From Ruminococcus sp. (lineage in GTDB: Bacteria > Bacillota > Clostridia > Oscillospirales > Ruminococcaceae): a DNA stretch of 44,168 nucleotides. The notes under the pieces are model-generated. The model searched no databases, was not told the origin of the DNA, and was given only the letters and a program-made list of their open reading frames with translations. Of the stretch, positions 2,170-29,574 are shown one piece after another. The stretch lies in contig JAFUQX010000005.1 of NCBI GenBank assembly GCA_017472145.1, positions 1-44,168 of the forward strand, read 5' to 3'. The stretch's first letter is position 1, and every line of letters starts with the position of its first letter. A program made the position numbers and the translations under genes.

Positions 2170-2184
2170 AGGCACAGCTCCCGA

Positions 2185-4515
2185 TCATACCTTGAGAATA
2201 TAGGTCTGCCCAGCCACAGTCGGGAAGCTGACCACACCGCCGTCTGTAACGGCATCCACTGTACCCTCCAAGCTGATCACACTGATGATCTCATCACAGC
2301 GAACGGCGCAGGGACTGCCATTCTTCGAGAGAATGGAGGCGCTCTCCAGCCGGCCGTCCTTCCAGCTCATGCTGACCTCAAAGCCGCCCCGTGCGCACAG
2401 GCCGCTGATGCTGCCGTTCTTCCAGGATTCCGGAAGAGCCGGAAGCAAATGAAGCTCTCCGCAGTGGCTTTGCAGCAGGCACTCGGCCACAGCCGCCGTA
2501 CCGCCAAAGTTTCCATCGATCTGGAAGGGCGGATGGGAATCCAGCATGTTGGGATTGGTGGAGTGTGCCAGCAGCTGACGCATATTTTCATAGGCCATGC
2601 CCTTATCCAGCAGACGGGCCCACATATTCATGATCCATGCACGGCTCCAGCCTGTGTGCCCGCCGCCGTGAATGAGACGGCGCACCAGTGTGGCCCGGGC
2701 TGCCTTTGCAAGAGAAGGCGTGCGGAAGGGCGAAATGAGATTGGCCGGATGGAGGGCAAACAGGTGAGAAATATGGCGGTGTCCCACCTCAACCTCATCA
2801 TAATCCACAGCCCACTCCTGGATCTGGCCGTACTTGCCCACCTGAATGGGCGGCAGCTTCTCCAGAATCGCCGAAAGCTCCTTGGCAAATTCCTCGTCCC
2901 GTCCCAGGATCTTCGTGCTCTCGATGACATTCTGAAGCAGCACGGTGATGATCTCTGTATCCATGGTAGGACCGATACAGAGACAGCCCTTCACACCGCT
3001 GGCTGTGCGGTATGTATTCTCCGGAGATACAGACGGCCCGGTCACCAGCTGACCCTTTTCATTTTCCATGAGATAATCCACGAAGAACAGAGCGGCTTCC
3101 TTCAGGGTATCATACTTCTCTGCAAGGAATTCCTCATCCATGGTATAGAGATAGTGCTCAAAGATGTGGAGACACAGCCATGCTGCACCCATAGGCCAGA
3201 TGGTAGCCGGCATCCACAGATCCTGAGGAGCGGTATCGCCCCAGATGTCCGTATTGTGGTGACAGGTAAAGCCACGGCAGTCATACATCTCTCTTGCCGT
3301 CTTGCGTCCCGGCTCACGCATACGCTCGATCAGATCGAACAGCGGCGTGTGACACTCGGATAGATTGCAGACCTCGGCCGGCCAGTAATTCATCTGAATG
3401 TTGATATTGATGGTATAGCGGCAGCCCCAGGCCGGCCACATATCCTGATTCCAGATACCCTGGAGATTCATGGGCTGCGTTCCCGGACGGCTTGCGGAAA
3501 TCATGAGATACCGTCCATAATTGAAATAGAGCACCATGAGCTGGGCATCCCGGATGGCCAGCTTGCACTCCTTATAGTCTCCCTCGTCCCCGTGGAGACG
3601 CTTCAGACGCTCATCTGTAGGCAGCTCACTTCCGCCTTCGCTGTTGTCCTCCAGATCAAACCGTACTCTCTGGAACAGCTCCTGATAATCGCTGATGTGG
3701 CGGTAGAGCAGCTCTTCATAGGAGCACTCCATGGCAAATTCCGCATCCAGCATAGCTGAATCCTCAAAGCTGTCCCCATCATAGAAGCTCGTGCCCACAG
3801 ACAGAACCAATGTGGCCTCGTCTGCATTTTCCACCACCAGCTGACCGCCCACGGTCTTTACAGTACCGCCTACAGAAGCTGCACCCAGGACAGCGGCAAA
3901 GAAGATCCCATCCCGGCTGCCTGTGCCTCCGTTGTAAAGGATGGCATTCTCCTTGCAGGGACGGCAGTCATCATAATAATCATCCCGTCCATCGATGGTG
4001 GCCCGGAGGTTTACCTTTCCCGGCTCGCTGGCGGCCACATGCACTACCAGTACATGATCCGGTGCAGAGACAAACACCTCCCGCTCATAGGTAACATCAT
4101 TTGCAGTAAAACGCACAGAGGCCACCGCCTGCTCCAGATCGAGACGGCGGATATAGTCCCTGGCCTTCCCGGCAAAATCCATGTGGATGCCCAGATTGCC
4201 CAAGGGCATATAGTGACGGGAATTGGGCGTTACACCCTGCATCTTTTCAAAGGCCAGCTTCTCCGCCTCCGGAATGCGCTCCTGCCTGAGAAGCTCCCGG
4301 ATTTCGTGAAAGCCCTCCAGAGCGTCGGGGTTGTTGCGCTCACGCTTTCCGCCCGACCAGACAGAGTCCTCGTTCAGCTTGATAACCTCATCCGCAGCAC
4401 CGCCGAATACCATACCGCCGATGCGGCCATTGCCCACCGGAAGCGCCTGGTCAAAATTTTCCGCCGGCTGCTTATACCATAATGTGGTTTGCATATCCAT
4501 TGTCTGTAAATCCAT
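2185..4515 (-). CDS. Glycoside hydrolase family 95 (alpha-L-fucosidase / alpha-L-galactosidase type)
   Basis: A 776-residue enzyme, close to the normal size for GH95. It opens with the GH95 N-terminal beta-domain ([29 protein letters not shown]). The (alpha/alpha)6 catalytic region follows, with LQGIWN and [14 protein letters not shown] (Asn residues near 370), SPENTY (Glu near 498) and FQIDGNFGG (Asp near 666). These match the Asn pair, the acid Glu and the Asp described for the Bifidobacterium 1,2-alpha-L-fucosidase. There is no signal peptide, so it should act in the cytoplasm on imported oligosaccharides; fucose versus L-galactose specificity cannot be told. The ATG at 4515 has GGAGG five bases upstream, better than the GTG at 4533. 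A promoter lies just upstream, and GH26 follows in the same unit. Confidence 0.93.
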
Positions 4516-4547
4516 AAATACCTCCAAAAGCACAGAGATTTCACCTT

Positions 4548-12161: not shown

Positions 12162-12190
12162 TTGACATCATACAGAATGAATGCTATAAT
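12162..12190 (+). promoter_or_regulatory. Consensus sigma-A promoter of the tandem dockerin operon
   Basis: TTGACA (12162-12167) and TATAAT (12185-12190), both perfect, are spaced by 17 bases, directly after the ispF terminator. The predicted leader is about 160 bases and contains a dockerin remnant. Confidence 0.93.
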
Positions 12191-12239: not shown

Positions 12240-12341
12240 GGGGATGTCAACGGGGACGGCGTGATCAATATATCTGATGCAGTCGTTACCCTCACCTATT
12301 CTGCACAATAGGCCGCCGGGCTCAGTCCCGGCTGGAACTAA
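12240..12341 (+). pseudogene. Dockerin remnant in the operon leader
   Basis: In one frame this reads GDVNGDGVINISDAVVTLTY, then SAQ, an in-frame TAG (12309-12311), and AAGLSPGWN with a TAA at 12339-12341. It is one dockerin half-repeat joined to the ending typical of the three genes downstream, and it has no start codon. After its stop comes the same spacer that separates the three genes (aagaaaggaaaact...atg). It is probably the 3' scar of a deleted upstream paralogue. Confidence 0.85.
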
Positions 12342-12356
12342 GAAAGGAAAACTCAT

Positions 12357-13904
12357 ATGAAAAAGAAGCTCACTGCCGCTCTTACAGCGGCAATCACCAC
12401 TGCGGCCATTTCTCTCCCGGTATATGCAGAACATAAGACGGTTCAGATGACCGTTGCGCCGGAGAATATGCTGAATGTACAGGTCGTTGACCCGGACGGA
12501 AATCCGGTAGAAGGCGTCGAAGTGACGATGACCAATTCCTCCGGTACAAAGGTGGCCCGTTGGAATACAGGTGATATCTATAATTATTATCGTTCAAATT
12601 CCGGAATTGACCTTTACAGCAAGCTTCCGGACAGCAACTGCCATTTCACGGAGCCTATTGAAACCTTTACCTCTCTGGCGGCCCCTTATACCGTCGCCGA
12701 CCTGAATGGCTATACGGACAACAGCTTTTCATCCGGAGAATTTGAGGATGATGTATGGTTCACCTCCGGCCAGAAGCGCACGCTTACACTCCTGGCCTAT
12801 GACCCGGATCTTGCAGCGGATACTTCCCTTGCTGCAAATCAGCTGGGAATATACAGAAGCGGCGGATGGAACAACCGCAGCACCTCCACTTATTTTCAGC
12901 TTGACAACACTGTATTCCAGATCAATCACGTGAGCAATGAATCAGGAGGATTGAGCGGCGGATTCGAAGGACTCCCGGCACTGGATGTATCTCAGAATAA
13001 TATCGGTATATTAGCGACTCACAGTCTTACGGATACAGATTTTGAAAAGATGTATTTCGGTGTGGAGTACAGCGAGCTGACGGCGGCGGATACTTTCTCT
13101 GATGCTTTCTCATTTGATCCGGACGCACGGGAATATATCAAGTACCGCGTACACATCACAGAGCTAGACTGGGTCCATGATTCTTTTGACGCCTGGGACA
13201 ATGCATCCGGCACCTTCAGCGCAGACGGACACATATATACCCTTGCTCAGGACCTTGACAGCACAGCAGGACTGGACTATACCACCTCGACACTTCAGAT
13301 CGTCAGCGGTATGATGGTTTCTGCGCCCATTCCGGATGAAAACGGCTACATCGAGTTCTATGTGGACAAGGCAACCCGCCGGTTCAGTGCCTATGTTGCC
13401 GGTGCATGGAAAAAATATGACTCTGCTTCCTCCTGGGACTGCGGTTATCTGGAAGACTACGCACTCAATGAATTGGCCGGGACGCACTACTCTCTCGAGG
13501 TAAGTGCAGTCACCCTGCCGGAAACAGGAGACACTCTCATAGATGTTCCGGCCGGAGAATATACGCTGTCCATTACGGACAATGTACCGGCCAGATTGCT
13601 TGCACCTGGGTCTGTCTCTGTAAATGTGGCTGCATCTCAGGAGGTGCAGAATGTGACGATCGTACTGGATGCGCTGTGCACAAAGGGTGATGTCAACGAG
13701 GACGGCGTGGCAGACATATCGGATGCGACCCTGGCGCTCACCCACTATGCCCGGACGGCCGCCAGTCTTGATTCCGGTCTGAGTGATGTACAGATATCCG
13801 CAGCTGATGTGGATGAGGACGGCGTGATCACCCTCTCTGATGCAACTGCTATCCTCACCTATTATGCACAATATGCCGCCGGGCTCAATCCCGGCTGGAA
13901 CTAA
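12357..13904 (+). CDS. Secreted dockerin protein, one copy of a novel ~380-residue module
   Basis: A 515-residue protein with a signal peptide (MKKKLTAALTAAITTAAISL, cleavage near VYA-E). One long module at about residues 35-440 matches no family I know. It opens with NVQVVDPDGNPVEGVEV and contains YIKYRVHITELD. The signature LQIVSGMMVSAPIPDENGYI is followed by EFYVDKATRRF, and the module closes with LIDVPAGEYTLSI and VQNVTIVLD. The opening and closing pieces resemble the start and end of Cna_B-type Ig domains, so the module may be such a fold with a large insert (inference). A canonical two-repeat type I dockerin occupies the last ~70 residues (GDVNEDGVADISDATLALTH; DVDEDGVITLSDATAILTYY). 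It is first of three tandem paralogues, and its function is unknown. Cellulosome attachment is likely. Confidence 0.9.
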   Translation: MKKKLTAALTAAITTAAISLPVYAEHKTVQMTVAPENMLNVQVVDPDGNPVEGVEVTMTNSSGTKVARWNTGDIYNYYRSNSGIDLYSKLPDSNCHFTEPIETFTSLAAPYTVADLNGYTDNSFSSGEFEDDVWFTSGQKRTLTLLAYDPDLAADTSLAANQLGIYRSGGWNNRSTSTYFQLDNTVFQINHVSNESGGLSGGFEGLPALDVSQNNIGILATHSLTDTDFEKMYFGVEYSELTAADTFSDAFSFDPDAREYIKYRVHITELDWVHDSFDAWDNASGTFSADGHIYTLAQDLDSTAGLDYTTSTLQIVSGMMVSAPIPDENGYIEFYVDKATRRFSAYVAGAWKKYDSASSWDCGYLEDYALNELAGTHYSLEVSAVTLPETGDTLIDVPAGEYTLSITDNVPARLLAPGSVSVNVAASQEVQNVTIVLDALCTKGDVNEDGVADISDATLALTHYARTAASLDSGLSDVQISAADVDEDGVITLSDATAILTYYAQYAAGLNPGWN

Positions 13905-13919
13905 GAAAGGAAAACTTAT

Positions 13920-16604
13920 ATGAAAAAGAAAATGACAGCCATGCTGACCGCTGCGGCCCTGACGTTCTCCCTTGCCAATGGAATGCCGGTCACAGCGGAG
14001 GACCCGGATCTCGACCTCCTGATCACACCGCCCAATCATCTGCATGTAGAGACTCTGAATGCGGCCGGAGAAACCGTAAACACAGAAATGAAGCTGATCG
14101 ATTCCAATGGCGTCTGCCAGGTAAAATTCGGCACACCTGGTTTCGAATTTCTCATAAATGAAACGCAGATCGAAGTGGATAAGCCCTATAAGACAGATTA
14201 TAGCTTCTCCATTCCGGTTACCGAAATCTTACAGTATATTCCCAGCGGCCTGGAATTTCTCCGCATCGACAATATACTATCCAGCGATGACCTTTCAAAG
14301 TATGATCTGAGTGTTGCCGAGGGAACATCCAGCAGCCATACCATGTACCTCAAAAACAAGCATGATACAACGGCCCTTACAGTGCCGGTCAATACCATCG
14401 GTATCTATGCGGACGATGCGATCGCTTCAAAAACGGTAGATCTCACATTCAGCATGGATGATACGGTCTATGCGATAGAAGACAGTCTTCTGGAGGACAG
14501 AAACATTGCCTTTTATCCTTATATAAATACAGAGAACCACCCGGAATTCAGTATGAATGATCCGAACAGCAGTCTGAGTTATGGCAGCCTGGACTATGAT
14601 CGATCTGTAGATAAATTTGATATGACCGGTGAAGAAACGGAATATGTTCTCTACACAATGCATATCTCTGAGCTTAATGATATGTTTATGAGCAACGGCA
14701 CCTTCTATGTGGAGAATGATGACTATGGAACAACGGTAATCGACCTGAAGCAGGATACGAACGAAACGGCCAGCGGTCTGATCATCGTCAGCGGTTCCAT
14801 GGTCAATGCTGTAGTCCCTGATGAACGAGGCAATATCCAGTTTTATGCGGAGAAGGAGCACAGGTATATATATGGTTGTCTTATATCCGCATGCCTGTAT
14901 CATGATAAAACCACCGGTAAAACGCTCGGCCGATCACTGATGGGAAGAGACATTTACAATTGCGCCGCAGAAAAAATGAATATAACGCTCACCGCAACGG
15001 ATTTTCCGGAAACAGGCACAAATATGCTGAATGTACCAGCTGGTGCGTATACCATCGAGTTTGCGTCTGTACCGGATGGATACCTCACCCCCGACCCGAT
15101 TCCTGTCACGGTAACAGATTCTGACGAGATACAGAACGTCTGCATTGTGCTGGAGGAAGGCACAGATCCGGCGGTTCCTGAGCCGCAGCCAGAGCCCTTG
15201 CCGGAGGGTGAGATGGTCTATCCTGAGGACAATATTCTGAATATCCTTGTACAGGATGAGAACGGAAATCTCATTCCGGATGCAACACTGGAGCTTAAAA
15301 ATGACACCGTCAATGAAAAATTTGACTCCGACGGCAGCTACCGCTACAACGGAAATTACCGTTACCATTCCGACTCTCCCCTCACCTGGTATTCAAGTAC
15401 CGATAAGGACCGGTCCATGTACATTCCCCTTGAGGAAATTGCCGCACGGGCCCAGACTGAGAACGCCTTTATGATGCAGTATACAGATGAGGATGATGAA
15501 AGACGCTTTTCCGAAGAGAATATCACCTTTTCATCCGGTGAAACAAAGGAGGTCTCTCTCCTTTCAAAGGAAGAAACGACCGCCGTGGACGCTGTCCTTC
15601 CAGCCGGACACATTGGAGTGTATGGCGATCCGAAATGGGAAAGCAATTCTTCTCCCTATATACCGTACCTTCTCGTGAATGAGCAGCCCTATTATTTCAG
15701 CTCAGATGAAAATACAGGCATATATGGAGACATAACCTGCTATGATATCGGCGAATATACAGACCTCGTTTACTACGGACTCTTTAATCCGGAGTTTGAA
15801 TCAGCAGGAGAAAGTCTGCTCACTCCCTCAGGCGGCCGATATGTGGATCCCAAGCCAAAGCTTTCGGAGGAACCCACAGAATATATAAAGCAGCGGATAC
15901 ATGTAAGCGAGATTTCCGATCAATTCAGATCAGACGGAACGGTCATACTGGAGGATATTCTGTTCAATCCCCGGAGCAATAGATCCGACGCACGCTGTCT
16001 GCTTCTGCTTATAAGCGGCGGCATGGTGAATGCAGTGATACCGGATGAAGACGGTTATGTGGAATTCTATGTAGAAAAGGAGAGCCGGCGCTACTCCTTT
16101 GAATCGATATATCAATACAGTCTCGTGGCCAACAGCTATATAGGGGCTGGTACGATGAAAATACGTGCACAGGGAAGCGCAGCAGACAAGTACACCGACA
16201 CCTATACAGCCGTTACGCTTCCGCAGGAGGGAATTGTTCTGACGACCGTCCCGGACGGCGAATATACCATTGAATTCACAGATGTCCCGGAAAATTACAT
16301 AGAGCCGGAGAAAACTACCCTGGTGGTCGGAGAGACCGAGGGCGTTCAGACTGTCATCCTCACGCTGGAAAAGGAATATATCCTGGGTGATGTCAACGAG
16401 GACGGCGTGGTAGACATATCGGATGCGACCCTGGCGCTCACCCACTATGCCCGGACGGCAGCCAGTCTCAGCTCGGATCTGACCGGGACTCAGCTCCTGG
16501 CGGCGGATATTGACGGGGACGGCGTGATCACCATTGCCGATGCAACCGCCATCCTCACCTATTATGCACAATATGCCGCCGGGCTCAATCCCAGCTGGAA
16601 CTAA
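13920..16604 (+). CDS. Secreted dockerin protein, two copies of the novel module
   Basis: An 894-residue paralogue of the preceding gene. It has a signal peptide (MKKKMTAMLTAAALTFSLAN) and module A at ~35-415, with signature IIVSGSMVNAVVPDERGNIQ. A Pro/Glu linker follows (PEPQPEPLPEGEMVYPEDN), then module B at ~440-815 with LLISGGMVNAVIPDEDGYVE. The C-terminal dockerin has GDVNEDGVVDISDATLALTH and DIDGDGVITIADATAILTYY. The 15-base spacer to the previous stop is almost identical to the one before gene 1 and the one after this gene, which shows tandem duplication. There are no catalytic motifs that I recognise. It could be a structural, adhesive or binding subunit. Confidence 0.9.
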   Translation: MKKKMTAMLTAAALTFSLANGMPVTAEDPDLDLLITPPNHLHVETLNAAGETVNTEMKLIDSNGVCQVKFGTPGFEFLINETQIEVDKPYKTDYSFSIPVTEILQYIPSGLEFLRIDNILSSDDLSKYDLSVAEGTSSSHTMYLKNKHDTTALTVPVNTIGIYADDAIASKTVDLTFSMDDTVYAIEDSLLEDRNIAFYPYINTENHPEFSMNDPNSSLSYGSLDYDRSVDKFDMTGEETEYVLYTMHISELNDMFMSNGTFYVENDDYGTTVIDLKQDTNETASGLIIVSGSMVNAVVPDERGNIQFYAEKEHRYIYGCLISACLYHDKTTGKTLGRSLMGRDIYNCAAEKMNITLTATDFPETGTNMLNVPAGAYTIEFASVPDGYLTPDPIPVTVTDSDEIQNVCIVLEEGTDPAVPEPQPEPLPEGEMVYPEDNILNILVQDENGNLIPDATLELKNDTVNEKFDSDGSYRYNGNYRYHSDSPLTWYSSTDKDRSMYIPLEEIAARAQTENAFMMQYTDEDDERRFSEENITFSSGETKEVSLLSKEETTAVDAVLPAGHIGVYGDPKWESNSSPYIPYLLVNEQPYYFSSDENTGIYGDITCYDIGEYTDLVYYGLFNPEFESAGESLLTPSGGRYVDPKPKLSEEPTEYIKQRIHVSEISDQFRSDGTVILEDILFNPRSNRSDARCLLLLISGGMVNAVIPDEDGYVEFYVEKESRRYSFESIYQYSLVANSYIGAGTMKIRAQGSAADKYTDTYTAVTLPQEGIVLTTVPDGEYTIEFTDVPENYIEPEKTTLVVGETEGVQTVILTLEKEYILGDVNEDGVVDISDATLALTHYARTAASLSSDLTGTQLLAADIDGDGVITIADATAILTYYAQYAAGLNPSWN

Positions 16605-16619
16605 GAAAGGAAAACTTAT

Positions 16620-19154
16620 ATGAAAAAGAAAATGACAGCCATGCTGACCGCTGCGGCCCTGACGGTCTCCCTTGCCAATGGACTGCCGGTCACAGCGGAA
16701 ACAGAATCTGAAACAGCAGCCCCGAAAAATGTCATTGCCAATACGATGCACATCGAGGTAACAGACAGCAGCGGTGAATCGGTAACCGACGCTGAGATGA
16801 AGCTGATAGATGCAGATGGTATCTGCCGATACAAGTTCAAAAGCGACAGCAGCCGATGCTACCCCATGAACGGTTCGGAAATCAGCTATGATCCGATCGA
16901 TGATGAGAAATCCGAATTCTGGGTCGGATTTGAACAATTTGAAAAGCTCATTCCAAGCGGTACGGAGCTGCTCAGCTATATAATAGGCGGCACTGAACTA
17001 TCATCCGCATCCGGAGCGCAATTCCAGCTTTCTGACGGTGAAAGCACAGAAGTAACACTTGTATATAAGGACCTGAATGAGGAAACAGATCTGACGGTCA
17101 TGCCGAATATGTTTGGCATATATGCAGATGAGGCCATTGCCGACAAATCCGTTCTGCCGGTTTACAGCATCGATGATACAGAATACGAGGTCATCAAAAG
17201 CCTTGATTATCACAAAAACATTGCCTATTATACACTCTATGATTCCGACATTGTAAACCACACCAGCTACACTCCCACGATCAGCACAGAGCCTACAGAG
17301 TACATTCTCTACACAGCGAACGTTTCGGAGCTTTCATCCAGATTCACCGAGGACGGTCTGCTCAGCTATGTTAATTCGCTCGTACCCGATGCACTTGTTT
17401 TTGACCTCAGACAGGATACAGAAGAAACCCGTACCTCTCTCATGATCGTCAGCGGGGCTATGGTCAATTACGTCGTACCCAATGAGAATGGATATATCCA
17501 GTTCTATGCAGAAAAGGAAACCAGAGAGTACGAAGTCGATTTTGACTATCACTATGAATACTCAGGAGATGGCGGACTTCAAGTGGGCACCAGCGGCTTC
17601 GGTCTTTATGGCACAGCCGGAGAAAGGATGGACATTACCGCCTCCATTCCCGATTTCCCGGAAAGCGGCGTAAATCTCGTATATGTTCCGGCCGGAGAAT
17701 ACACCATCGAGTTCGATTCCGTGCCCGACACCTGCAGCAATCCCGGAGCGATCCCGGTCACCATTGAGGATTCCTCGGATGTAAAGTCCGTCAGCATCCA
17801 GCTGGAGGATTATAAGGAGCCAGCCGTTACAGAGCCTGCTCCATGGCCGGAGGGTGAGATTGTCTATCCGGAAGGAAATATCCTCAATATACAGGTGAAG
17901 GATTCAGACGGCGCACTTCTGAGCGGCATAAACATGAAAATGAAACACGGCAATCGGGTCAGCTCCTACTCCAGCACGCCCTTAACCAATCAGTTTCTTC
18001 CTATTCCAATCGGCGAATTGAAAAGTCTGTCTGAAACTGACGGCATCAATGCGATAGCTGTTGACAACGAATTGTGTTACAACGACGATGAAACAATTCT
18101 ATTCAAAAGCGGTGAAACTGTGGAGATCTCAGCCTATGCCATAAATGATACGGAAGAAGCTTCTTTCACCCTCAGCGAGGGATCCTTCGGCGTTTACGTA
18201 GATCCTCTGTGGCAGTATAATTCCCTGTACACCGGCTGTCTGCTGATCAACGACACAGCGATATATATGAATCCGGAAAATGATACAAGCCAATACGGCA
18301 CGGTAACCGTTTACACCGTAGATGGCTATGTAAGCTCTGCATACAGCGGACTGTGTAAACCGGGCACGGAGGTCACTCAGCTCGATGACTTTTCCAGCGG
18401 TTCTTCATGCGCTCATCCCGATACTGCATGGGATGCCGAATATATATTGTACCGTACACACATAAGCGAATTGAGTGATGAATTCAGAGCAGACGGTACA
18501 TTCATTGATGATGATTACCTGATCAACCCACGCATGAATACACCATCTTATAGATGCTTCATGCTCATTAAAAGCGGCGCTATGATGAATGCTGTAATTC
18601 CTGATGAGGATGGCTATGTGGAATTCTATATTGAAAAAGAAGACCGTAAATATAAGTTAGAGGTCGATGGCAGTCACAGCACCTACGGCGGCGGCCAGAC
18701 TACCTGCGGCGTATACAGCAGCGGCCTTGCTGCCGATGCGGCTGATGTATATACCTGTACTGCGGTAACGCTTCCAGAAGACGGCGTTTGCATTACTGAT
18801 ATCTCTGCCGGAGAATACACCCTGACCTTCCCCGACCTGCCTGCACAGTACAAGGATCCGGGCGAAATCGTCCTGACTGTGGACGATGTAAAGGGCGTTC
18901 AGACCGTGGAGATCCTGCTTGAGCCGGGCTATACCCTGGGTGATGTCAACGAGGACGGCGTGGTAGACATATCGGATGCGACCCTGGCGCTCACCCACTA
19001 TGCCCGGACGGCGGCCAGTCTCAGCTCGGATCTGACCGAGACTCAGCTCCTGGCGGCGGATATTGACGAGGACGGCGTGATCACCCTCTCCGATGCAACC
19101 GCCATCCTCACCTACTATGCACGGTATGCCGCCGGGCTCAATCCTGCGTGGTAA
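16620..19154 (+). CDS. Secreted dockerin protein, two copies of the novel module (third paralogue)
   Basis: An 844-residue protein whose first 25 residues are nearly identical to those of the preceding gene (MKKKMTAMLTAAALTVSLAN). Module A spans ~40-395 (LMIVSGAMVNYVVPNENGYI) and is followed by the linker PAVTEPAPWPEGEIVYPEGN. Module B spans ~420-770 (LIKSGAMMNAVIPDEDGYVE). The dockerin ends with DIDEDGVITLSDATAILTYY and AAGLNPAW. Signal peptides and dockerins are much better conserved between paralogues than the modules, as expected if the modules have diversified for different ligands or surfaces. It is the last gene of the operon; a bidirectional terminator follows. Confidence 0.9.
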   Translation: MKKKMTAMLTAAALTVSLANGLPVTAETESETAAPKNVIANTMHIEVTDSSGESVTDAEMKLIDADGICRYKFKSDSSRCYPMNGSEISYDPIDDEKSEFWVGFEQFEKLIPSGTELLSYIIGGTELSSASGAQFQLSDGESTEVTLVYKDLNEETDLTVMPNMFGIYADEAIADKSVLPVYSIDDTEYEVIKSLDYHKNIAYYTLYDSDIVNHTSYTPTISTEPTEYILYTANVSELSSRFTEDGLLSYVNSLVPDALVFDLRQDTEETRTSLMIVSGAMVNYVVPNENGYIQFYAEKETREYEVDFDYHYEYSGDGGLQVGTSGFGLYGTAGERMDITASIPDFPESGVNLVYVPAGEYTIEFDSVPDTCSNPGAIPVTIEDSSDVKSVSIQLEDYKEPAVTEPAPWPEGEIVYPEGNILNIQVKDSDGALLSGINMKMKHGNRVSSYSSTPLTNQFLPIPIGELKSLSETDGINAIAVDNELCYNDDETILFKSGETVEISAYAINDTEEASFTLSEGSFGVYVDPLWQYNSLYTGCLLINDTAIYMNPENDTSQYGTVTVYTVDGYVSSAYSGLCKPGTEVTQLDDFSSGSSCAHPDTAWDAEYILYRTHISELSDEFRADGTFIDDDYLINPRMNTPSYRCFMLIKSGAMMNAVIPDEDGYVEFYIEKEDRKYKLEVDGSHSTYGGGQTTCGVYSSGLAADAADVYTCTAVTLPEDGVCITDISAGEYTLTFPDLPAQYKDPGEIVLTVDDVKGVQTVEILLEPGYTLGDVNEDGVVDISDATLALTHYARTAASLSSDLTETQLLAADIDEDGVITLSDATAILTYYARYAAGLNPAW

Positions 19155-19176: not shown

Positions 19177-19216
19177 AAAGGACGGTTACTGGATTTGCAC
19201 CAGTAACCGTCCTTTA
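19177..19216. terminator. Bidirectional terminator
   Basis: A perfect 13-bp stem ggacggttactgg / ccagtaaccgtcc with a 7-base loop, with A-rich and T-rich flanks. It stands between the plus-strand dockerin operon and the convergent minus-strand galE unit. Confidence 0.9.
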
Positions 19217-21027: not shown

Positions 21028-24000
21028 TCAGCCGGTTGTCTCAGGTTCAGTCTCCGACTGAGCATTGGCCTTGTCATACCAGAGTGAACCTACAATTTCC
21101 TTCAGACTCGGAATGATTACCTCCCACTGCGGATTCAGACTTGCACCATACTGAGCGTAGTAGGTCAGTATGTTGGTAGCATCGTTGATCAGCAGTTTGC
21201 CTGCATCACTATTTACACCAGCCGTGCTTTCTGTGTCTACATCGGCCAGGAAGAAGGCCAGCTTCTCATAGTTCGTATCCGCATTGTCTGTCAGTGTCGG
21301 ATTCAGACTTGCACCGAACTTTGCATAGTAAGTCAGCACAGCTGTAGCATCTGAAATTTCTACCATACCGCTCAAGGTAGCATCGCCCTTAACACCGATG
21401 TATACCAGCGACTGAGCATCCAGCATCTCACCATTGTAGTATGCATTTACATAGCCCTTATATACACCCTCATAATCAGATGTACCTTCACGCTCTGCAA
21501 ACAGTGTCTCCGGTGTCAGACCGTTGAAATCAATGTCATTGATGATATCGGTCTCACCGCTTGTATCATCGGAGTAATAAGTGATCAGAATTACAGACTC
21601 AAAGAGATCCGCAGCCTTGAACTCTCTGTCATCTACAGAGAAGTAGAAGTTCGGCTCAATTGCTACCGCAACAACCTCACTGGATACAGCATATACATCC
21701 GGCGGCAGTGTTGTTGTCGTCGTGGTCGTCGTTGTGGTGGTCGTTGTGGTCGTGGTCGTTGTGGTCGTTGTGGTCGTGGTGGTGGTCGTCGTGGTTGTGG
21801 TTGTCGTGGTCGTGGTCGTCGTTGTTGTAGTTGTCGTAGTTGTAGTCGTGGTAGTCGTTGTGGTCGTCGTTGTGGTGGTTGTCGTTGTAGTCGTTGTTGT
21901 GGTCGGCTCCGGAGTGGTCGTTGTGGTTGTGGTCGTCGTAGTTGTCGTTGTCGGCTCCGGAGTAGTCGTTGTCGTCGTGGTCGTTGTAGTCGTCGTTGTA
22001 GTGGTGGTTGTCGTGGTCGTTGTTGTGGTTGTGGTCGTCGTGGTAGTCGTTGTAGTGGTGGTTGTGGTGGTTGTTGTCGTGGTCGTGGTCGTAGTTGTCG
22101 TCGTTGTGGTCGTGGTCGGCTCCGGAGTGGTAGTCGTTGTAGTGGTGGTTGTGGTGGTCGTTGTAGTCGGCTCCGGAGTTGTGGTCGTTGTTGTGGTGGT
22201 TGTCGTGGTCGTTGTAGTAGTCGTTGTTGTGGTGGTCGTTGTTGTGGTAGTTGTAGTGGTTGTAGTGGTTGTGGTCGTTGTAGTAGTGGTGGTTGTGGTT
22301 GTTGTAGAGGACTCCTCCGGAATGATCAGGCAGATCGCACCATCGGTGATGGTAACAGCATCATACTCAACCATGTTGTTGCCTTCGTTATCCAGGAATT
22401 CCCACGCACCGCGAGCTGTGCTTTCCTGAACTACCGGGAATTCATAGTACTGTGTACCATCCTCGGCTGTCTGGATCGGCAGACCCAGCTCCTGAGCCTT
22501 TGCGATTGCCTCCTCATAAGTCAGGATCGGATTGTATTCAAAGCTTACGATCGTAGCACCATCGGCGGCCTTTGTAGGAATCTCATCGCTGATGGCTGCA
22601 CCAAAGGACATCTCTGCCTTGTTGATCAGCATGCTGTTCAGCCACGGATATGCATCACCGGCTGTACCATCGTAGTATTCTGCGAAAGTGCTCAGGTTTT
22701 CGTCAACCTTCAGGTTGCCGCGGACACCCTCAGAACCAATGTAGTCATTATATACATTTACGGAAACTTCCAGAACGCCTGCATCCCATGCATCCTTGTC
22801 ATAGAAGTTCTTGGAGATTACCAGCTGAACCTTATCATCATATTCCGGAACAGCATCAGCCAGGATGTAAACATAGCTGGTCTCAATCAGCTCCAGGCCG
22901 CCTTCCTCATAGATGTTTACCTCATCAGAGTTTGTCCAGTCCCAGCCTCTGTAGCGTCCGCTTTCTTCCAGTACATTATAGTTTGTATCCAGATGGATCG
23001 GGAATGCATAATAGTAAACGTCAGCTTCAGCATCATATTCCTTTTCGATGCCGTACATAGCAGCAGTTGCTGCAACGATGGAAGCATCTGCTACCTCGTG
23101 ATCTACACCGAAGATCAGTTCGCCGTCTGTAAAGGTCGGCTTCTGATCCGTACCAGCGGTTGCAAAGATCAGATCCTGTGTTACGTTCCATATAGAGTGG
23201 TTACCGCCTGCAAACTGGAAGTCATATGCATCCAGCTTACGGCCATCTGCAAAGGGAGTCATAACCTTCTGCAGTGCATCGCTCATGATGTACTTACCGC
23301 CCAGAGCGATACAGTCATCTTCTACATTGTAAGCAACCAGACCCAGGTAACCGGTCTCACCCGGAGTGATGTACTTGCTTGTATTGTCTGCATTACGGCC
23401 TTCCATCTGTACATACAGATCAGTCGGAACATAGGGATCGCCCTCAGCCAGTACGTATACATAGCTTGTTTCAACCAAGGACATAGCGCCCGCCTCATAG
23501 AGGTTGACGTCTCCGGCGATGGTGAAATCCCAGCCTCTGTAGTACTTACCGTCTACCAGCTCATTATAACTTGTATCCAGATGTACCGGGAATGCATAAT
23601 AGTAAACCTTTTCTTCCTCGTCATACTGCTTTTCGATGCCATACTTCTCAGCTGTTGCATCGACAACATCCTGACTTGCAATTGCATGATCCACACCGAA
23701 GATCAGCTCGCCGTCTGTAAATACAGGGCTGGGATCTGTCGCATTGGAAGCAAAGATCATTTCGGATGTTACGCTCCATACAGAGTGGTTTCCGCCGTCA
23801 AACTGGAAGTCATATACATCCAGCAGGCGTCCGTCTGCATAGGGTGTGAAGATCTCGGCCAGCGCATCGCTCAGGTAGTATTTACCGCCCAGTGCTACGC
23901 AGGGCTCAGATGCATTGTATGCAACCAGACCCAGATAGCCGCCGTCTCCCGGAGTGATGTACTTGCCGCCGTCATAGTTGCGAGCTTCCATCTGTACATA

Positions 24001-25488
24001 CAGACCGGAATCATCGAAGGATACGGTTGTAGTAGCTGTTGTGGTGGAAGCAGATGTAGCTGTAGTGGTTGTAGTTGTAGTAGTTGTTGTTGTGGAGGTA
24101 GTTGTATCTGTAGTTGTAGAGGAGGAAACAGCCGCTTCACCTACTACAATATTTGCATAACCGCCGATGGCCACTGCACCATCAGATGTTTCAAACAGGT
24201 TTGTTTTTGCGGTATCATTCAGAACCCATTCCCAGTTATATCTTTCGAGACCAGCGTCATCCACATACATAACCTCGGAAACTTCCAGCGGGAATGCATA
24301 ATACTGTGTACCGTCCGCAGCAGTCTGGAGCGGCAGATCATATTCCGCAGCAACAGCCTCTACAGTAGCCTTATCGGCCACATCGTACAGCAGAGCAAAT
24401 ACCATATCGTCATCAACCGGATCGGATACGTGGTCTGCCGGATACTGAACCGCAAAGATGACATCATTTTCATTTTGGCTGTTGATTTCCAGCACGCCCT
24501 GTACAGAATCGCCGGCTGCATTCTTTGCTGTGCAGTTCAGCAGATACTCGTCCATTTCCCTGGAAGCCTCATCCAAATAGTAAGGAGTCAGAACCTTGCT
24601 GGCGGCCTCACTCAGGCTGAAACGGCCCTTGATACCAACGTTACCCTCGGTATCGTTATGTACAGTCAGACCGATCGCTGCATTCATGCTTTTCGGCTGA
24701 ATAAACTTGCTGGCTACAGACTTAAAGCTGTCATCCAGCTCAGCGCCCTCGATTACCAGAGCGATCTGATCCTCCGGGATCGGTTCGCTGGTAACAGCAG
24801 GAGTGGTTGTTGTAACAGCACCCGTTGTTGTTGTAACGGTATCGCTTGTTGTGGTTGCAGTCGTTGTGGTGGTCGTTTCTGTGGTGCTCTGGAGTGCACT
24901 GCTGTCAACTGTAACAGTGATCTCACCGTGATAAGGAGTAACGTTGTATTCAACATCAGCTTCCGATGCTGCATAGTAATCCAGCAGCTCTATCGGGAAG
25001 GTATAGCTTGTGGTATCACCATCGGTATAACCATTGATGCCAACCTTTTCAGCCAGTGCAACGATCTCCTCATCCTCAGACAATGTCAGAGAGAAGGTTA
25101 CGATCGTCTCGTCCGCATTTTCAGAGAAAAAGGTATCCTCTGATACAAACATCCAGGTGTAGGTGTCGGTGTTGATATTTTCACCAGCAGCAACCGCATC
25201 TGCAAAAGCAGGACCAGCTTCCGCAGTAATTTCGGTAAACAGCTTGGCATCCTGGCTCTGATAAGTAGCCAGATTCAGCGTACCGCCGTTTACAGCCTCT
25301 TCAAACCCAACCGAGATCGTGTCAACGTCTACTGTCAGCTGAACAACCTCACCAGCTGCGCCGCTTACATGTCCTACAATAAATGCAGGGCCATCAGCAG
25401 CAGACGAACTCAGGCTCAGTCCGGCCGGCATCATTGAAACAGCAGTACAGCAGGCTGTCAGCATTGAAAGCACTTTTTTAAACTTCAT
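21028..25488 (-). CDS. Giant Thr-rich multimodular dockerin protein, candidate unusual scaffoldin or surface adhesin
   Basis: A 1486-residue secreted protein. The signal peptide is MKFKKVLSMLTACCTAVSMM with cleavage near SSAADG. Five beta-rich modules of 180-215 residues lie at about 30-200, 240-455, 490-675, 680-865 and 870-1060. The third and fourth are close duplicates (LYVQMEARN / LYVQMEGRN, YLGLVAYN, DGELIFGVDH, YYYAFP). The pattern (Ig-like start, W-containing middle, DGxLIFxV, YxFP strand) recalls cohesins, but that assignment is inference. Thr linkers sit at ~199-231, ~454-485 and a huge one at ~1061-1260 broken by four PEP units. The C-terminal dockerin (~1375-1465) is atypical: GDATLSGMVEISDAT, then a second loop with a long insertion before LLINDATNILTYYAQYG. 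The ATG at 25488 with AGGA upstream is preferred over 25584. Confidence 0.88.
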   Translation of the reverse strand: MKFKKVLSMLTACCTAVSMMPAGLSLSSSAADGPAFIVGHVSGAAGEVVQLTVDVDTISVGFEEAVNGGTLNLATYQSQDAKLFTEITAEAGPAFADAVAAGENINTDTYTWMFVSEDTFFSENADETIVTFSLTLSEDEEIVALAEKVGINGYTDGDTTSYTFPIELLDYYAASEADVEYNVTPYHGEITVTVDSSALQSTTETTTTTTATTTSDTVTTTTGAVTTTTPAVTSEPIPEDQIALVIEGAELDDSFKSVASKFIQPKSMNAAIGLTVHNDTEGNVGIKGRFSLSEAASKVLTPYYLDEASREMDEYLLNCTAKNAAGDSVQGVLEINSQNENDVIFAVQYPADHVSDPVDDDMVFALLYDVADKATVEAVAAEYDLPLQTAADGTQYYAFPLEVSEVMYVDDAGLERYNWEWVLNDTAKTNLFETSDGAVAIGGYANIVVGEAAVSSSTTTDTTTSTTTTTTTTTTTATSASTTTATTTVSFDDSGLYVQMEARNYDGGKYITPGDGGYLGLVAYNASEPCVALGGKYYLSDALAEIFTPYADGRLLDVYDFQFDGGNHSVWSVTSEMIFASNATDPSPVFTDGELIFGVDHAIASQDVVDATAEKYGIEKQYDEEEKVYYYAFPVHLDTSYNELVDGKYYRGWDFTIAGDVNLYEAGAMSLVETSYVYVLAEGDPYVPTDLYVQMEGRNADNTSKYITPGETGYLGLVAYNVEDDCIALGGKYIMSDALQKVMTPFADGRKLDAYDFQFAGGNHSIWNVTQDLIFATAGTDQKPTFTDGELIFGVDHEVADASIVAATAAMYGIEKEYDAEADVYYYAFPIHLDTNYNVLEESGRYRGWDWTNSDEVNIYEEGGLELIETSYVYILADAVPEYDDKVQLVISKNFYDKDAWDAGVLEVSVNVYNDYIGSEGVRGNLKVDENLSTFAEYYDGTAGDAYPWLNSMLINKAEMSFGAAISDEIPTKAADGATIVSFEYNPILTYEEAIAKAQELGLPIQTAEDGTQYYEFPVVQESTARGAWEFLDNEGNNMVEYDAVTITDGAICLIIPEESSTTTTTTTTTTTTTTTTTTTTTTTTTTTTTTTTTTTTTTTTTTTPEPTTTTTTTTTTTTTTPEPTTTTTTTTTTTTTTTTTTTTTTTTTTTTTTTTTTTTTTTTTTTTTTTTTTTTPEPTTTTTTTTTTTTTPEPTTTTTTTTTTTTTTTTTTTTTTTTTTTTTTTTTTTTTTTTTTTTTTTTTTTTTTTTTTTTTTTTTLPPDVYAVSSEVVAVAIEPNFYFSVDDREFKAADLFESVILITYYSDDTSGETDIINDIDFNGLTPETLFAEREGTSDYEGVYKGYVNAYYNGEMLDAQSLVYIGVKGDATLSGMVEISDATAVLTYYAKFGASLNPTLTDNADTNYEKLAFFLADVDTESTAGVNSDAGKLLINDATNILTYYAQYGASLNPQWEVIIPSLKEIVGSLWYDKANAQSETEPETTG
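21709..22306 (-). repeat. ~600-base threonine-codon tract
   Basis: About 199 codons, nearly all ACN on the minus strand, so the plus strand is almost only G and T with scattered C and A. Four PEP-encoding interruptions (ggctccgga on the plus strand) lie near 21903, 21952, 22117 and 22168. All four Thr codons are mixed irregularly, so the tract is kept at protein level rather than as a simple DNA repeat. Two shorter Thr tracts lie at 24032-24125 and 24795-24892. Confidence 0.95.
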
Positions 25489-25709
25489 TTCAAATTCTTC
25501 CTTTCTTTTTATCATTTTGCGCATTGTTTTCATACAACTGCATCCATGCGCCTTGCAAAAGGATCTGCACCTGCACAGGGTCACAGCCGTACTTTATCCG
25601 CTTTGACTGCGCCTCTGTCCATCCCCTTCGCCTTCAAAAGGATATAAATCCACCCTGAAATCACTCTCATTTCAAGGCATATGCATAAGCGCAATCACAA
25701 GATACCTCT

Positions 25710-26758: not shown

Positions 26759-29419
26759 TTATTCCGCCTTCACGTAATTGGTGATCTCAAATTTTGTGAT
26801 CGTACCCGATCCCATAAGCTGGATCTTGTATACACCCTCAAGGGAAATGTTCTCACCGCCTACACTGGCGCCGATAACCTGTCCGCTGATGTTATAAAAG
26901 TAAACCGTACAGTCCTCATCAATATTCAGGTACATTTCAGAGGTATCATAACCCTTGTACTCCTCCAGATACTGCCGTGTCGGTGCAAGATCGATCTCCA
27001 GCCCAGTACTGTATGCAACCGGAATATTGTCGCTCAGTAAGGTCGTTTCATTGCCAAGTGCGTTAAATTCCGGATACAGATCGAAATGCTCAACCTCTGT
27101 CAGATCTCGGACAAGCGACTCATTCCAGCTGGACTCAAAAATGAAATCAGATTCATGTTCCTTCAGCCAGTCATAGCAGCCGTCCAGGATGCCTTCGCCA
27201 TAAACACTCTCGATCAGCTGGATCTGTTTCTCCGGAGTAAAGCCGTCTATATATGTAGCGGTTCCGTCTTCATTCTCTATAAATGTCCCTTCAAAATTTC
27301 CAAGTGCATCCCGGGCCGGGATCCAGCTTGTAAAGTCGCCCTGTGTTGCATGCAGATAGGACAAGAGTACGTTTCCTACACCATACAGTCCATTAAAGCC
27401 TGAAGGATACCCATTTTCGATCCAGTATTCCAGCGGCTGAGTGTAGATATCTTCTTCAACATTATGATTATGATCATTCTCGATAGACATCCAGCCAATC
27501 GCACAGGTATCGGGATAATGCTCCTCCAGATAGTCCAGAGCCAGCGAAGTCACGTAAACTGCAAATCCTTCTGTCAGCGTTTTTCCAGCAAAATACTCAT
27601 CATTTCTGTTTTCCAGCACATGCGCCATCTCATGGATAAAATGATAATTATCGTCTATTAGCAGATCTCCTGACAAAAGATAAACCATATCAGATGCACT
27701 AGCTCCGATGCCCACCTCCGACTCGCTGTCTGTATCCGGACGGCTGACTTTTATCACAAGCCGCTTTCCATGGGGAGCATCCGTATAGGACAGCCCTGTA
27801 ACCGCCTCGATGGCTTCATAGATCCGGTCGGCATGGAGGGCCAGGTCATTGCGGACATAGATATTCTCATCGATCTCGAATGTGATGTGCTCCGTCTCCA
27901 CGATCGTGAATTCCTGTGTAATATAACCAGGCTTTTCCATGGGCACATAATTGGTGATCTCAAAGCGTGTAACCGTACCCTCTCCTACAAGCCTGATCTT
28001 ATAGACATTCTCAAGGGAGACACCCTCACCGCCTGTACACTCCCGGAGCAGCTCACCATTCTCATCATAAAGAGCCAGCTGACAGGATTCATCAATATTC
28101 AGATACATCTCAGAGGTATCATAGTGCTTGTACTTTTCCAGATAGAAGCGTGTCGGCTCAAGGTCGATTTCAAGGTCACTGTAAGCAACCGGAATATTGC
28201 TGTCCAGTAAGGTCGTTTCATTGCCAAGTCCAGTAAAGTACGGATACAGATCGAGATGCTCAACCTCTGTCAGATCACGGACATACAATTTACTCAGATC
28301 TACATTAAAAAAGAAATCAGATTCATGCTCCTTCAGCCAGTCATAGCAGCCGTCCAGGATGCCTTCGCCATAAACGCTCTCGATCAGCTGAATCTGTTTC
28401 TCTGGAGTAAAGCCGTCTACATATGTAGTGGTTCCATCTTCATTCTCTATAAATGTCGATTCAAAATAACCAAGTGCATCCCGGGCTGGGATCCAGCTTG
28501 TAAAGTCGCCCTGTGTTGCGTGCAGATAAGCCAGGATCAGCCGTCCTACGCCATACAGCCCGTTGCCGGCTGAAGGATATCCATTTTCGATCCAGTATTC
28601 CAGCGGTTGGGTGTAAATATCTTCATTGATATTATAATTCGAGTTATTCCCAACAGTTGTGCCCCCAATTGCATAGGTATCGGGATAATGCTCCTCCAGA
28701 TAATCTGTAACCAGAGCGGTGGTATAGGTCGCAAATCCCTCTGTCAGCGTTTGCCCAGCAAAGTATTCGTCATTTCTTTCTTCCAGTACATGTACTGATT
28801 CATGAATGATTGTCATGGTATCTGCGATCAGCAGATCACCAGATGAAAAATAAACCTCATGCCCTGCATGAGCAGCGCCAATCTCCGACTCGCTGTCTGT
28901 ATCCGGGCGGCTGACATTTATCACAAGCCGTTCTCCATAGGGTGCATCCGTATAGGACAGACCTGTAACCGCCTCGATGGCTTCATAGATCCGGTCTGCG
29001 TGAAGGGCCAGGTCATTGCGGACATAGATATTCTCATCGATCTCGAATGTGATGTGTTCCGTCTCCACGGTCGTGAATTCCCGTGTGATGTATCCGGCTG
29101 CGCCGCAGAACTGCTCCAGGATCTGTTCCACCAATGCGTTTTTCATCAGCACGGAATCAAATACATTGATCCGCTGATTCCCGTCAAAATCCGCATTCGG
29201 CCAGGTGAAGGTCTCCGTTTCCAGGCCCAGGAGATATTTTTGCAGCAGCACAACATCCATGATGGTGAAGCTTCCGTCTGAGTTTGCGTCTCCGAGCAGC
29301 GTGACCTGCTCTGTTTCGGCCGTTTCTGCATGAACCGAAACGGTCGGGAAAAGCCCCAGGAGATTCAGCAGCAGCGTACAGCTAAGAAGAACGGATAAAA
29401 AATGCATTCGTTTTTTCAT
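26759..29419 (-). CDS. Secreted dockerin protein with two tandem HExxH metallopeptidase modules
   Basis: An 886-residue protein. Signal peptide MKKRMHFLSVLLSCTLLLNL with cleavage near VHA-E. An N-terminal type I dockerin at ~45-105 has GDANSDGSFTIMDVVLLQKY and ADFDGNQRINVFDSVLMKNA. Two homologous modules of ~390 residues follow. Each opens with FEIDENIYVRNDLALHADRI and carries a zinc motif: TIIHESVHVLEERN with LTEGFATY (H near 205), and FIHEMAHVLENRN with LTEGFAVY (H near 595). HExxH plus a downstream TEG Glu is the gluzincin pattern seen in peptidase-MA-like families. Each module ends in a beta-domain finishing FEITNYV. The ATG at 29419 has AGGAGGA six bases upstream. It is probably a cellulosome-borne protease; its substrate is unknown. 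Confidence 0.9.
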   Translation of the reverse strand: MKKRMHFLSVLLSCTLLLNLLGLFPTVSVHAETAETEQVTLLGDANSDGSFTIMDVVLLQKYLLGLETETFTWPNADFDGNQRINVFDSVLMKNALVEQILEQFCGAAGYITREFTTVETEHITFEIDENIYVRNDLALHADRIYEAIEAVTGLSYTDAPYGERLVINVSRPDTDSESEIGAAHAGHEVYFSSGDLLIADTMTIIHESVHVLEERNDEYFAGQTLTEGFATYTTALVTDYLEEHYPDTYAIGGTTVGNNSNYNINEDIYTQPLEYWIENGYPSAGNGLYGVGRLILAYLHATQGDFTSWIPARDALGYFESTFIENEDGTTTYVDGFTPEKQIQLIESVYGEGILDGCYDWLKEHESDFFFNVDLSKLYVRDLTEVEHLDLYPYFTGLGNETTLLDSNIPVAYSDLEIDLEPTRFYLEKYKHYDTSEMYLNIDESCQLALYDENGELLRECTGGEGVSLENVYKIRLVGEGTVTRFEITNYVPMEKPGYITQEFTIVETEHITFEIDENIYVRNDLALHADRIYEAIEAVTGLSYTDAPHGKRLVIKVSRPDTDSESEVGIGASASDMVYLLSGDLLIDDNYHFIHEMAHVLENRNDEYFAGKTLTEGFAVYVTSLALDYLEEHYPDTCAIGWMSIENDHNHNVEEDIYTQPLEYWIENGYPSGFNGLYGVGNVLLSYLHATQGDFTSWIPARDALGNFEGTFIENEDGTATYIDGFTPEKQIQLIESVYGEGILDGCYDWLKEHESDFIFESSWNESLVRDLTEVEHFDLYPEFNALGNETTLLSDNIPVAYSTGLEIDLAPTRQYLEEYKGYDTSEMYLNIDEDCTVYFYNISGQVIGASVGGENISLEGVYKIQLMGSGTITKFEITNYVKAE

Positions 29420-29574
29420 AACAACTCCTCCTAATATAAATGGTATCGTATTTTTATCGGGCCGCAATATCCCTTGTTGAGCCGCCATCCCCCTCTCTTA
29501 AGGCGCATCGGACGCACAGCCGCCTGTGAATGCGCCGTCTTTCATTTGTAGAAAAAGCTGAAAATTATAACCAT

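What the first reader, a model, noticed from the sequence alone, without database searches (positions are those of the whole stretch)
12357..19154. Tandem family of secreted dockerin proteins built from a novel ~380-residue module
Three adjacent genes encode five copies of a module that I cannot assign. It has a recurring core signature (VSGxMVNAVIPDExGY followed by xEFYxEKExR), a Cna_B-like opening strand and a closing VPAGEYTIEF strand. Copy number is 1+2+2. The signal peptide and dockerin are near identical between paralogues while the modules diverge strongly, which suggests diversification of ligand or surface specificity. The dockerins predict cellulosome display. A non-catalytic binding, adhesin or structural role is inference.
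Basis: partly seen in the sequence, partly recalled or inferred. Interest (0 to 1): 0.85.

Follow-up and report, generated by a model that had tools for sequence, protein, structure and literature searches.

The report
Tandem surface proteins with split domain
A gut Ruminococcus-like bacterium carries a three-gene operon of secreted proteins built from a new, about 380-residue module (a common surface-protein domain split open by a large unknown insert), all ending in much the same plug for the cellulosome, apparently because the plug is copied between neighbouring genes while the modules keep their separate histories.

Summary
In detail: genes at 12357-13904, 13920-16604 and 16620-19154 carry 1+2+2 copies of one module, each gene with a signal peptide and C-terminal dockerin. 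The module is no longer wholly unassigned. Its two ends are the two halves of one CnaB/SpaA-type (prealbumin-like) domain, co-linear with SpyCatcher/CnaB2 and clearer with the middle cut out. Between them sits a 265-310-residue insert matching nothing in the PDB and nothing credible in Pfam. Isopeptide Lys/Glu equivalents are absent. Full-length modules were found only in the window's taxonomic family, with a dockerin or, in five proteins, a sortase-like tail. The operon's site is empty in one congener. The contrast reflects copying of the plug, not demonstrated acceleration of the modules. Best reading: non-catalytic surface-displayed binding proteins, ligand unknown. No structure model was obtained.

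The parts
12162..12190 (+). Consensus sigma-70 promoter TTGACA-17-TATAAT with TG before the second hexamer
   Evidence: 12 of 12; 11-12 of 12 before the arrays of G003, G007 and G004, best 8 of 12 in G010
12240..12356 (+). Decayed C-terminal half of a dockerin (in-frame stop) plus the array's usual intergenic spacer, now in the 5' leader of gene 1
   Evidence: 85% over 114 nt to the end of gene 1 plus spacer
12357..13904 (+). Gene 1: signal peptide (by eye), one module, dockerin (515 aa)
13920..16604 (+). Gene 2: signal peptide (by eye), modules a and b, dockerin (894 aa)
16620..19154 (+). Gene 3: signal peptide (by eye), modules a and b, dockerin (844 aa)
12447..13676 (+). Module m1; insert at 12576-13505, flanks are the CnaB-like halves
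14016..15155 (+). Module m2a; insert at 14142-14993
15207..16376 (+). Module m2b; insert at 15336-16208
16725..17807 (+). Module m3a; insert at 16851-17645
17853..18929 (+). Module m3b; insert at 17964-18761
13683..13901 (+). Dockerin of gene 1
16383..16601 (+). Dockerin of gene 2, homogenised with that of gene 3
18936..19151 (+). Dockerin of gene 3
19177..19215 (+). Terminator-like hairpin, 16 pairs, after gene 3

Best explanation
An operon of three secreted, non-catalytic proteins that the cell displays on its surface or cellulosome through one shared class of dockerin. Each module is a CnaB/SpaA-type domain in which a loop of 8 residues in CnaB2/SpyCatcher has been replaced by a 265-310-residue insert. 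The CnaB part would be the rigid frame and the insert the business end, binding an outside ligand (plant wall material, host glycan or another cell). Recombination or gene conversion at the dockerin, helped by tandem position, keeps the plug of some neighbouring genes alike, and so matched to the same cohesin, while the modules follow their own lines of descent. Shown: split-domain homology by sequence, homogenised dockerins, synteny, two alternative anchors in relatives. Inferred: the beta-sandwich fold, the recombination mechanism, which cohesin is bound, the binding function and the ligand.
For: Split CnaB: profile positions 12-47 and 336-365 match residues 30-65 and 74-103 of 4mli (E 7e-4 for the two pieces together); with the insert cut out of 10 of the 20 modules the profile matches 4mli from end to end (E 7.8e-7) and other CnaB-type pilus and adhesin chains, against 3.7e-5 and half-length matches for the same halves in swapped order. 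Insert: no PDB sequence at E up to 5, no credible Pfam. Surface: of 26 proteins with the module whose C-terminus I read, 20 end in a dockerin (one cut by a contig end), 5 in a Thr-rich or acidic stalk with an xPxTG-like tail, 1 is unclear. The nearest PDB dockerin is that of ScaH, a group-4 dockerin reported to bind the surface-anchored ScaE cohesin (PMC5301203, passages). Homogenisation: one within-genome pair in each of four genomes shares 65/71, 69/71, 66/71 or 73/80 dockerin residues and 38/40, 35/37, 33/37 or 41/42 fourfold sites, with only 29-42% of module residues alike; the orthologues L056_2/L057 share 300/384 in the module but 41/78 in the dockerin. Of 36 positions kept in at least 80% of 20 modules, 19 are Gly, Pro, Tyr or Phe.
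Against: The swapped-order control also scores, since each half resembles CnaB by itself (Pfam SpaA in 6 of 10 members, against 8 of 10 in the right order). A fifth genome with two module genes, G171, does not have homogenised dockerins (43/66 residues, 10/20 fourfold sites). The Gly-Arg of the ScaH dockerin is Ile-Ser here, so the ScaE assignment is weak, and no ScaE-like anchor was identified in this genome: the cohesin model found two places, and the ORFs seen in those loci showed no sortase tail. The closest dockerin elsewhere in the genome is on a protein that by eye is a GH5 cellulase, which would fit integration into the enzyme complex instead. Six conserved charged residues (D141, E225, D280, E286, K291, R294) leave catalysis open. 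Ligand binding is untested.
Confidence: 0.55

Rival explanations
1. The module is a new carbohydrate-binding module, that is, the ligand is plant cell wall polysaccharide and the proteins are CttA-like substrate tethers.
For: The genome has 124 dockerin matches; the window also holds a CttA-like protein with an X-dockerin, a GH26-CBM35 protein and a CBM2 protein. Surface display of substrate binders is described for CttA (PMC5301203, passages).
Against: No CBM family matches any module or insert in Pfam. Sortase-tailed relatives occur in four genera; whether those live on fibre was not tested.
Confidence: 0.3
2. The insert is an enzyme of an undescribed family.
For: Large insert with a few strongly conserved charged residues; dockerins often carry enzymes (general knowledge).
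Against: No match of the insert to any PDB sequence, and none of the module or insert to a curated enzyme family in Pfam or NCBIfam; the invariant positions (N9, P279, G283, Y353) are structural in type.
Confidence: 0.15
3. The near-identical dockerins reflect selection for one cohesin, or very recent duplication, rather than recombination between tandem genes.
For: Dockerin and cohesin must match; of 57 dockerin pairs under 6 kb apart only 3 are homogenised, and 4 of the 7 homogenised pairs lie on different contigs; G171's two neighbours are not homogenised.
Against: Silent sites are also homogenised (33/37 to 41/42) while those of the modules of the same pairs are alike at only 27-34%, and orthologous dockerins between species share only 2/21 to 11/26 fourfold sites over eight pairs. 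Recent duplication of whole genes is excluded by the modules. 3 of 57 near pairs against 4 of 7083 others reach 85% at silent sites (Fisher p 1.7e-5; the cut-offs were chosen by me).
Confidence: 0.12

Closest known systems
CnaB2 domain of the fibronectin-binding protein used as SpyCatcher (PDB 4mli, 2x5p), and Pfam SpaA PF17802
   Same: Opening strands and closing strands align in order
   Different: Split by 265-310 residues; the isopeptide Lys position is Val in 17 of 20 and never Lys, the Glu position is never Glu
R. flavefaciens group-4 dockerin proteins (ScaH, CttA, ScaB; PMC5301203, PMC2930009, passages)
   Same: Best PDB match is the ScaH dockerin (E 5.5e-13); the two repeats of each dockerin share 15-18 of 31 residues
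   Different: The recognition Gly-Arg of ScaH is not kept; no X-module match in these three proteins
R. flavefaciens FD-1 ORF01263-ORF01267: five tandem ORFs ending in group-4b dockerins, mostly transglutaminase-like (PMC2930009, passages)
   Same: Head-to-tail secreted dockerin genes with conserved C-terminal and variable N-terminal parts
   Different: Different passenger; the conserved part is said to reach upstream of the dockerin; no test of silent sites in the passages seen
FD-1 ORF02170-ORF02173: four tandem SIGN-UNK-Doc group-4a genes (PMC2930009, Table 1 as shown)
   Same: Tandem secreted proteins of unknown module with group-4a dockerins
   Different: Sequences not on hand; homology not tested

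Membership tests
Dockerin type I (PF00404) | Profile score above the curated cut-off | tested here: met
   25.5, 33.2 and 31.9 bits against 22.9
R. [quoted passage not shown]
   Repeat 1 and repeat 2 share 18, 15 and 17 of 31 residues in genes 1, 2 and 3; no threshold and no control dockerins compared
R. flavefaciens group-4 dockerins | Gly-Arg at the recognition site, as reported for several members | tested here: not met
   Ile-Ser at the aligned place in the first repeat
R. flavefaciens group-4 dockerins | Binding to the ScaE cohesin | not testable with these tools
   Needs a binding assay
CnaB / SpaA prealbumin-like domain (PF17802) | Profile score above cut-off on the natural protein | tested here: inconclusive
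   Above cut-off in gene 2 only (28.3 against 23.1 bits, two stretches, best one a half-profile match); 14.1 bits in gene 1, none listed for gene 3; 7 of 20 modules match at E up to 0.01
CnaB / SpaA prealbumin-like domain (PF17802) | One continuous domain of about 90 residues | tested here: not met
   Halves separated by 265-310 residues in 20 modules
Isopeptide-forming CnaB | Lys in the first strand and Glu as catalyst (roles recalled) | tested here: not met
   Val 17, Thr 1, Leu 1, Cys 1 at the Lys place; no Glu at the Glu place, 20 sequences; the columns rest on the alignment
Carbohydrate-binding modules | Match to a curated CBM family | tested here: not met
   None in Pfam for modules or inserts; CAZy/dbCAN models not on hand
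Sortase-anchored surface proteins (relatives only) | xPxTG-like motif, hydrophobic stretch, basic tail | tested here: met
   By eye in five relatives, L059, L043, L044, L094, L046; not in the window proteins, which end in dockerins

The most novel reading that the evidence does not exclude
A new surface-recognition domain family of gut Ruminococcus-type bacteria, made by inserting a large unknown domain into a CnaB frame, that has moved between two display systems (cellulosome dockerin and sortase stalk); and a rule for cellulosome evolution: in tandem arrays the dockerin can evolve in concert by gene conversion, so paralogues stay plug-compatible while their modules age and specialise freely.
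Probability: 0.5. Interest if true: 0.65.

Novelty: new variant of a known kind. Interest (0 to 1): 0.5.

Why it matters
Dockerin proteins of unknown module are a large part of a ruminococcal cellulosome (118 proteins in FD-1, PMC2930009, passage). This gives one such module a boundary, a partial origin (split CnaB), a distribution, a syntenic home with an empty site, and a second anchoring mode, so that function can be tested on a defined insert. The concerted dockerins offer an explanation of how tandem cellulosomal paralogues keep one cohesin specificity, and warn that dockerin similarity alone is not evidence of recent gene duplication.

Tried and rejected
No fold search was therefore possible.

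The whole-module profile against solved structures gave the CnaB N-terminal half as its best stretch in the top hits. Rejected as families of the module: CarboxypepD_reg, Big_1 and DUF7382 (under their cut-offs) and the chance-like hits. An isopeptide-linked role was rejected. Virus or plasmid origin: no relative in viral contigs or plasmids. A fossil gene in the G007 gap was looked for and not found; the gap holds an unrelated ORF. That adjacent dockerin genes are homogenised in general was rejected: 3 of 57 pairs under 6 kb (such pairs include repeats within one ORF), and G171's neighbours are not. A folded regulatory leader over the fossil dockerin was not supported (z -1.58, 15 of 200 shuffles fold as well).
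Full report
WHAT IS THERE. Three head-to-tail genes (515, 894, 844 aa) lie between ispF and a short DUF-like gene followed by galE. They begin after a promoter that matches the sigma-70 consensus at 12 of 12 positions (12162-12190) and end before a 16-pair terminator-like hairpin (19177-19215), so they look like one operon. Each has a signal-peptide-like start (judged by eye) and a C-terminal dockerin above Pfam's cut-off. Five modules occur as 1+2+2, and no sixth was found in the genome. The genome is a 2.55 Mb, 76-contig assembly with 124 dockerin matches, 122 of them over the cut-off; the named relatives are Ruminococcus and Oscillospiraceae MAGs.

WHAT THE MODULE IS. A profile of 20 modules (five from the window, 15 from named loci L053-L059) matches SpyCatcher/CnaB2 in two co-linear pieces, profile 12-47 to residues 30-65 and 336-365 to residues 74-103 (E 7e-4 for the whole chain; the single pieces are weak, i-Evalues 0.11 and 59). 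The 8-residue gap of CnaB2 thus corresponds to 288 profile positions. Cutting the middle out of 10 of the 20 modules gives a profile that matches 4mli from 2-92 to 18-103 at E 7.8e-7 and other CnaB-type chains such as SdrD, pilus proteins and a collagen adhesin. The same halves in swapped order give only half-length matches, best 3.7e-5. In Pfam, SpaA is found in 8 of 10 natural-order joins (best 1.8e-7) and in 6 of 10 swapped ones (best 7.9e-6); so much of the signal is in each half alone, and the order adds one to two orders of magnitude. The insert (265-310 residues in 20 modules) matches no PDB sequence at E up to 5 and has only single-member Pfam hits at E 0.012 or worse. At the place of the isopeptide Lys the 20 modules have Val 17, Thr 1, Leu 1, Cys 1, and none has Glu at the place of the catalytic Glu (the roles are recalled). 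Of 36 positions kept in at least 80%, 19 are Gly, Pro, Tyr or Phe and six are charged.

WHERE IT OCCURS. In the genus 5 of 16 genomes, our own included, have full modules (a sixth, G005, has only a 47-position weak match). Family: 14 of 396 sampled genomes at E up to 1e-6. Order: 4 of 394 at E up to 1e-3 including our own, the only other substantial one being in the same family. Phylum: 3 of 398 including our own, the other two over 70 and 36 positions only. No relative in viral contigs or plasmids. These are samples, so rare copies elsewhere cannot be excluded. I read the C-termini of 26 proteins with the module: 20 with a dockerin (G010's is cut by the contig end), 5 with a Thr-rich or acidic stalk and an xPxTG-like tail (L059, L043, L044, L094, L046), 1 unclear (L098); weak or partial loci (such as L026, L047-L049, L052, L099, L100) were not classified. 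The change between dockerin and sortase-like anchors suggests that the module works at the surface and is the functional unit.

THE LOCUS. The array lies next to ispF in the window, G003, G004 and G010, and one unrelated ORF away in G007; the DUF side is also confirmed in all but G010. G003 has the same 1+2+2 layout, G004 1+1, G007 2, G010 2 up to the contig end. In G011 fewer than 80 bases separate the matched ends of ispF and the DUF gene: an empty site. In the remaining genus genomes ispF was not found within about 1.5 kb of the DUF gene, nor in the longer stretches taken for G002, G008 and G009, so they do not inform on the site. Consensus promoters of 11-12 of 12 stand before the arrays of the window, G003, G007 and G004; the best in G010 is 8. 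The module tree pairs m1 with G003_1 (100/100), puts all six second modules together (100/100) and the six first modules together (93/87), so the two-module gene is older than these species; the split of genes 2 and 3 is not resolved.

THE ENDS EVOLVE IN CONCERT. For genes 2/3 of the window the dockerins share 65/71 residues and 38/40 fourfold sites, the modules 304/725 and 48/143. The same holds for G003 genes 2/3 (69/71, 35/37; modules 227/730, 32/95), G004 (66/71, 33/37; 107/375, 14/46) and L056 genes 1/2 (73/80, 41/42; 119/379, 16/59). Not all pairs do: G003_1/2 (40/71, 7/23), L056_1/3 and L056_2/3 (44/79, 43/79) do not, window gene 1 is intermediate (59/72 and 60/71, 28/35 and 28/37), and in a fifth genome, G171, the two neighbours are not homogenised (43/66, 10/20; modules 159/384). 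Orthologues show the reverse: L056_2 and L057 share 300/384 in the module but 41/78 in the dockerin; WIN1 and G003_1 share 226/408 in the module (55%) and 39/71 in the dockerin (55%). Signal peptides are near identical only between window genes 2 and 3. High-identity DNA tracts at the dockerin are 202-256 bases in the homogenised pairs of the window, G003 and G004 and 383 (at 82%) in L056. Genome-wide I compared 120 of 124 dockerins (the four lowest were left out): 7 of 7140 pairs have at least 85% alike at 12 or more fourfold sites; three are neighbours (the window pair, a C6 pair, a C45 pair), four are on different contigs. The C6 and C45 neighbours carry other passengers, not the module, that have also diverged (188/308 and 184/590 identical). 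Neighbours are enriched (3 of 57 against 4 of 7083, p 1.7e-5, cut-offs chosen by me; near pairs include repeats within one ORF), but adjacency is neither needed nor enough. A decayed half-dockerin followed by the same spacer upstream of gene 1 suggests that the array once held another gene there.

HOW IT MOST LIKELY WORKS. The proteins are exported and plugged by the dockerin into a cohesin. The best solved relative of the dockerin is that of ScaH, reported to bind the surface-anchored ScaE (PMC5301203, passages); but the Gly-Arg of ScaH is Ile-Ser here, and the nearest dockerin in this genome (79%) is on a protein that by eye is a GH5 cellulase. Surface anchoring and enzyme-complex integration are thus both open. 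A CnaB frame with a large loop insert suggests a binding protein; ligand and fold are inference.

AGAINST WHAT IS KNOWN. Tandem dockerin genes with conserved C-termini and variable N-terminal parts were described in R. flavefaciens FD-1 (PMC2930009, passages), as were four tandem unknown-module group-4a genes, which may or may not be this family. Searches for dockerin with 'concerted evolution' (0 papers), 'gene conversion' (1, on an unrelated method by its title), 'prealbumin-like fold' (0) and CnaB with Ruminococcus (4, listing only, none titled on such a module) found no report of the split module or of homogenised dockerins in this open-licence library; most subscription papers are not held.

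VERDICT. Real, ordered and only partly known: a new variant of a known kind (CnaB-related surface modules on cellulosomal dockerins), with an unassigned insert and a good case of concerted dockerins.

Noticed in passing
window 21028-25584 (-): Large Thr-rich protein with a CttA-type X module (PF18244) and a dockerin near its C-terminus, nearest in the PDB to putative cellulose-binding protein chains 4wkz and 4iu2; its dockerin repeats (ISDATAVLTYYA, INDATNILTYYA) look like those of the array.
   Followed up: partly
window 26759-29488 (-): Secreted-looking protein with an N-terminal dockerin and two tandem copies of a domain with an HExxH motif (HESVH, HEMAH), which suggests a duplicated zinc peptidase; Pfam gave only Dockerin_1 and a short B2 hit.
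   Followed up: no
L078 (G000:C6:11000-15000): Two adjacent genes with homogenised dockerins (66/67 residues, 36/36 fourfold sites) and diverged bodies (188/308, 55/77), not of the module family; a third near-identical dockerin is on C33.
   Followed up: partly
L072 (G000:C45:55000-60600): Another adjacent pair with homogenised dockerins (73/77, 37/41) and diverged bodies (184/590, 31/100).
   Followed up: partly
G000: C74:20180/C63:15675 and C52:14922/C35:14898 dockerins: Cross-contig dockerin pairs nearly identical at silent sites (23/24, 24/26); they may be neighbours split by assembly or distant conversion events.
   Followed up: no
window 460-4533 (-): GH26-CBM35 protein next to a GH95 enzyme.
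   Followed up: no
window 39998-40693 (-) and 42187-43401 (+): A short CBM2/CBM49 protein, and a Mob_Pre plasmid recombination protein, suggesting a mobile element near the contig end.
   Followed up: no
L040 6538-7428 (-): In G007 an unrelated ORF, by eye an SGNH-type hydrolase, lies between ispF and the array gene.
   Followed up: no
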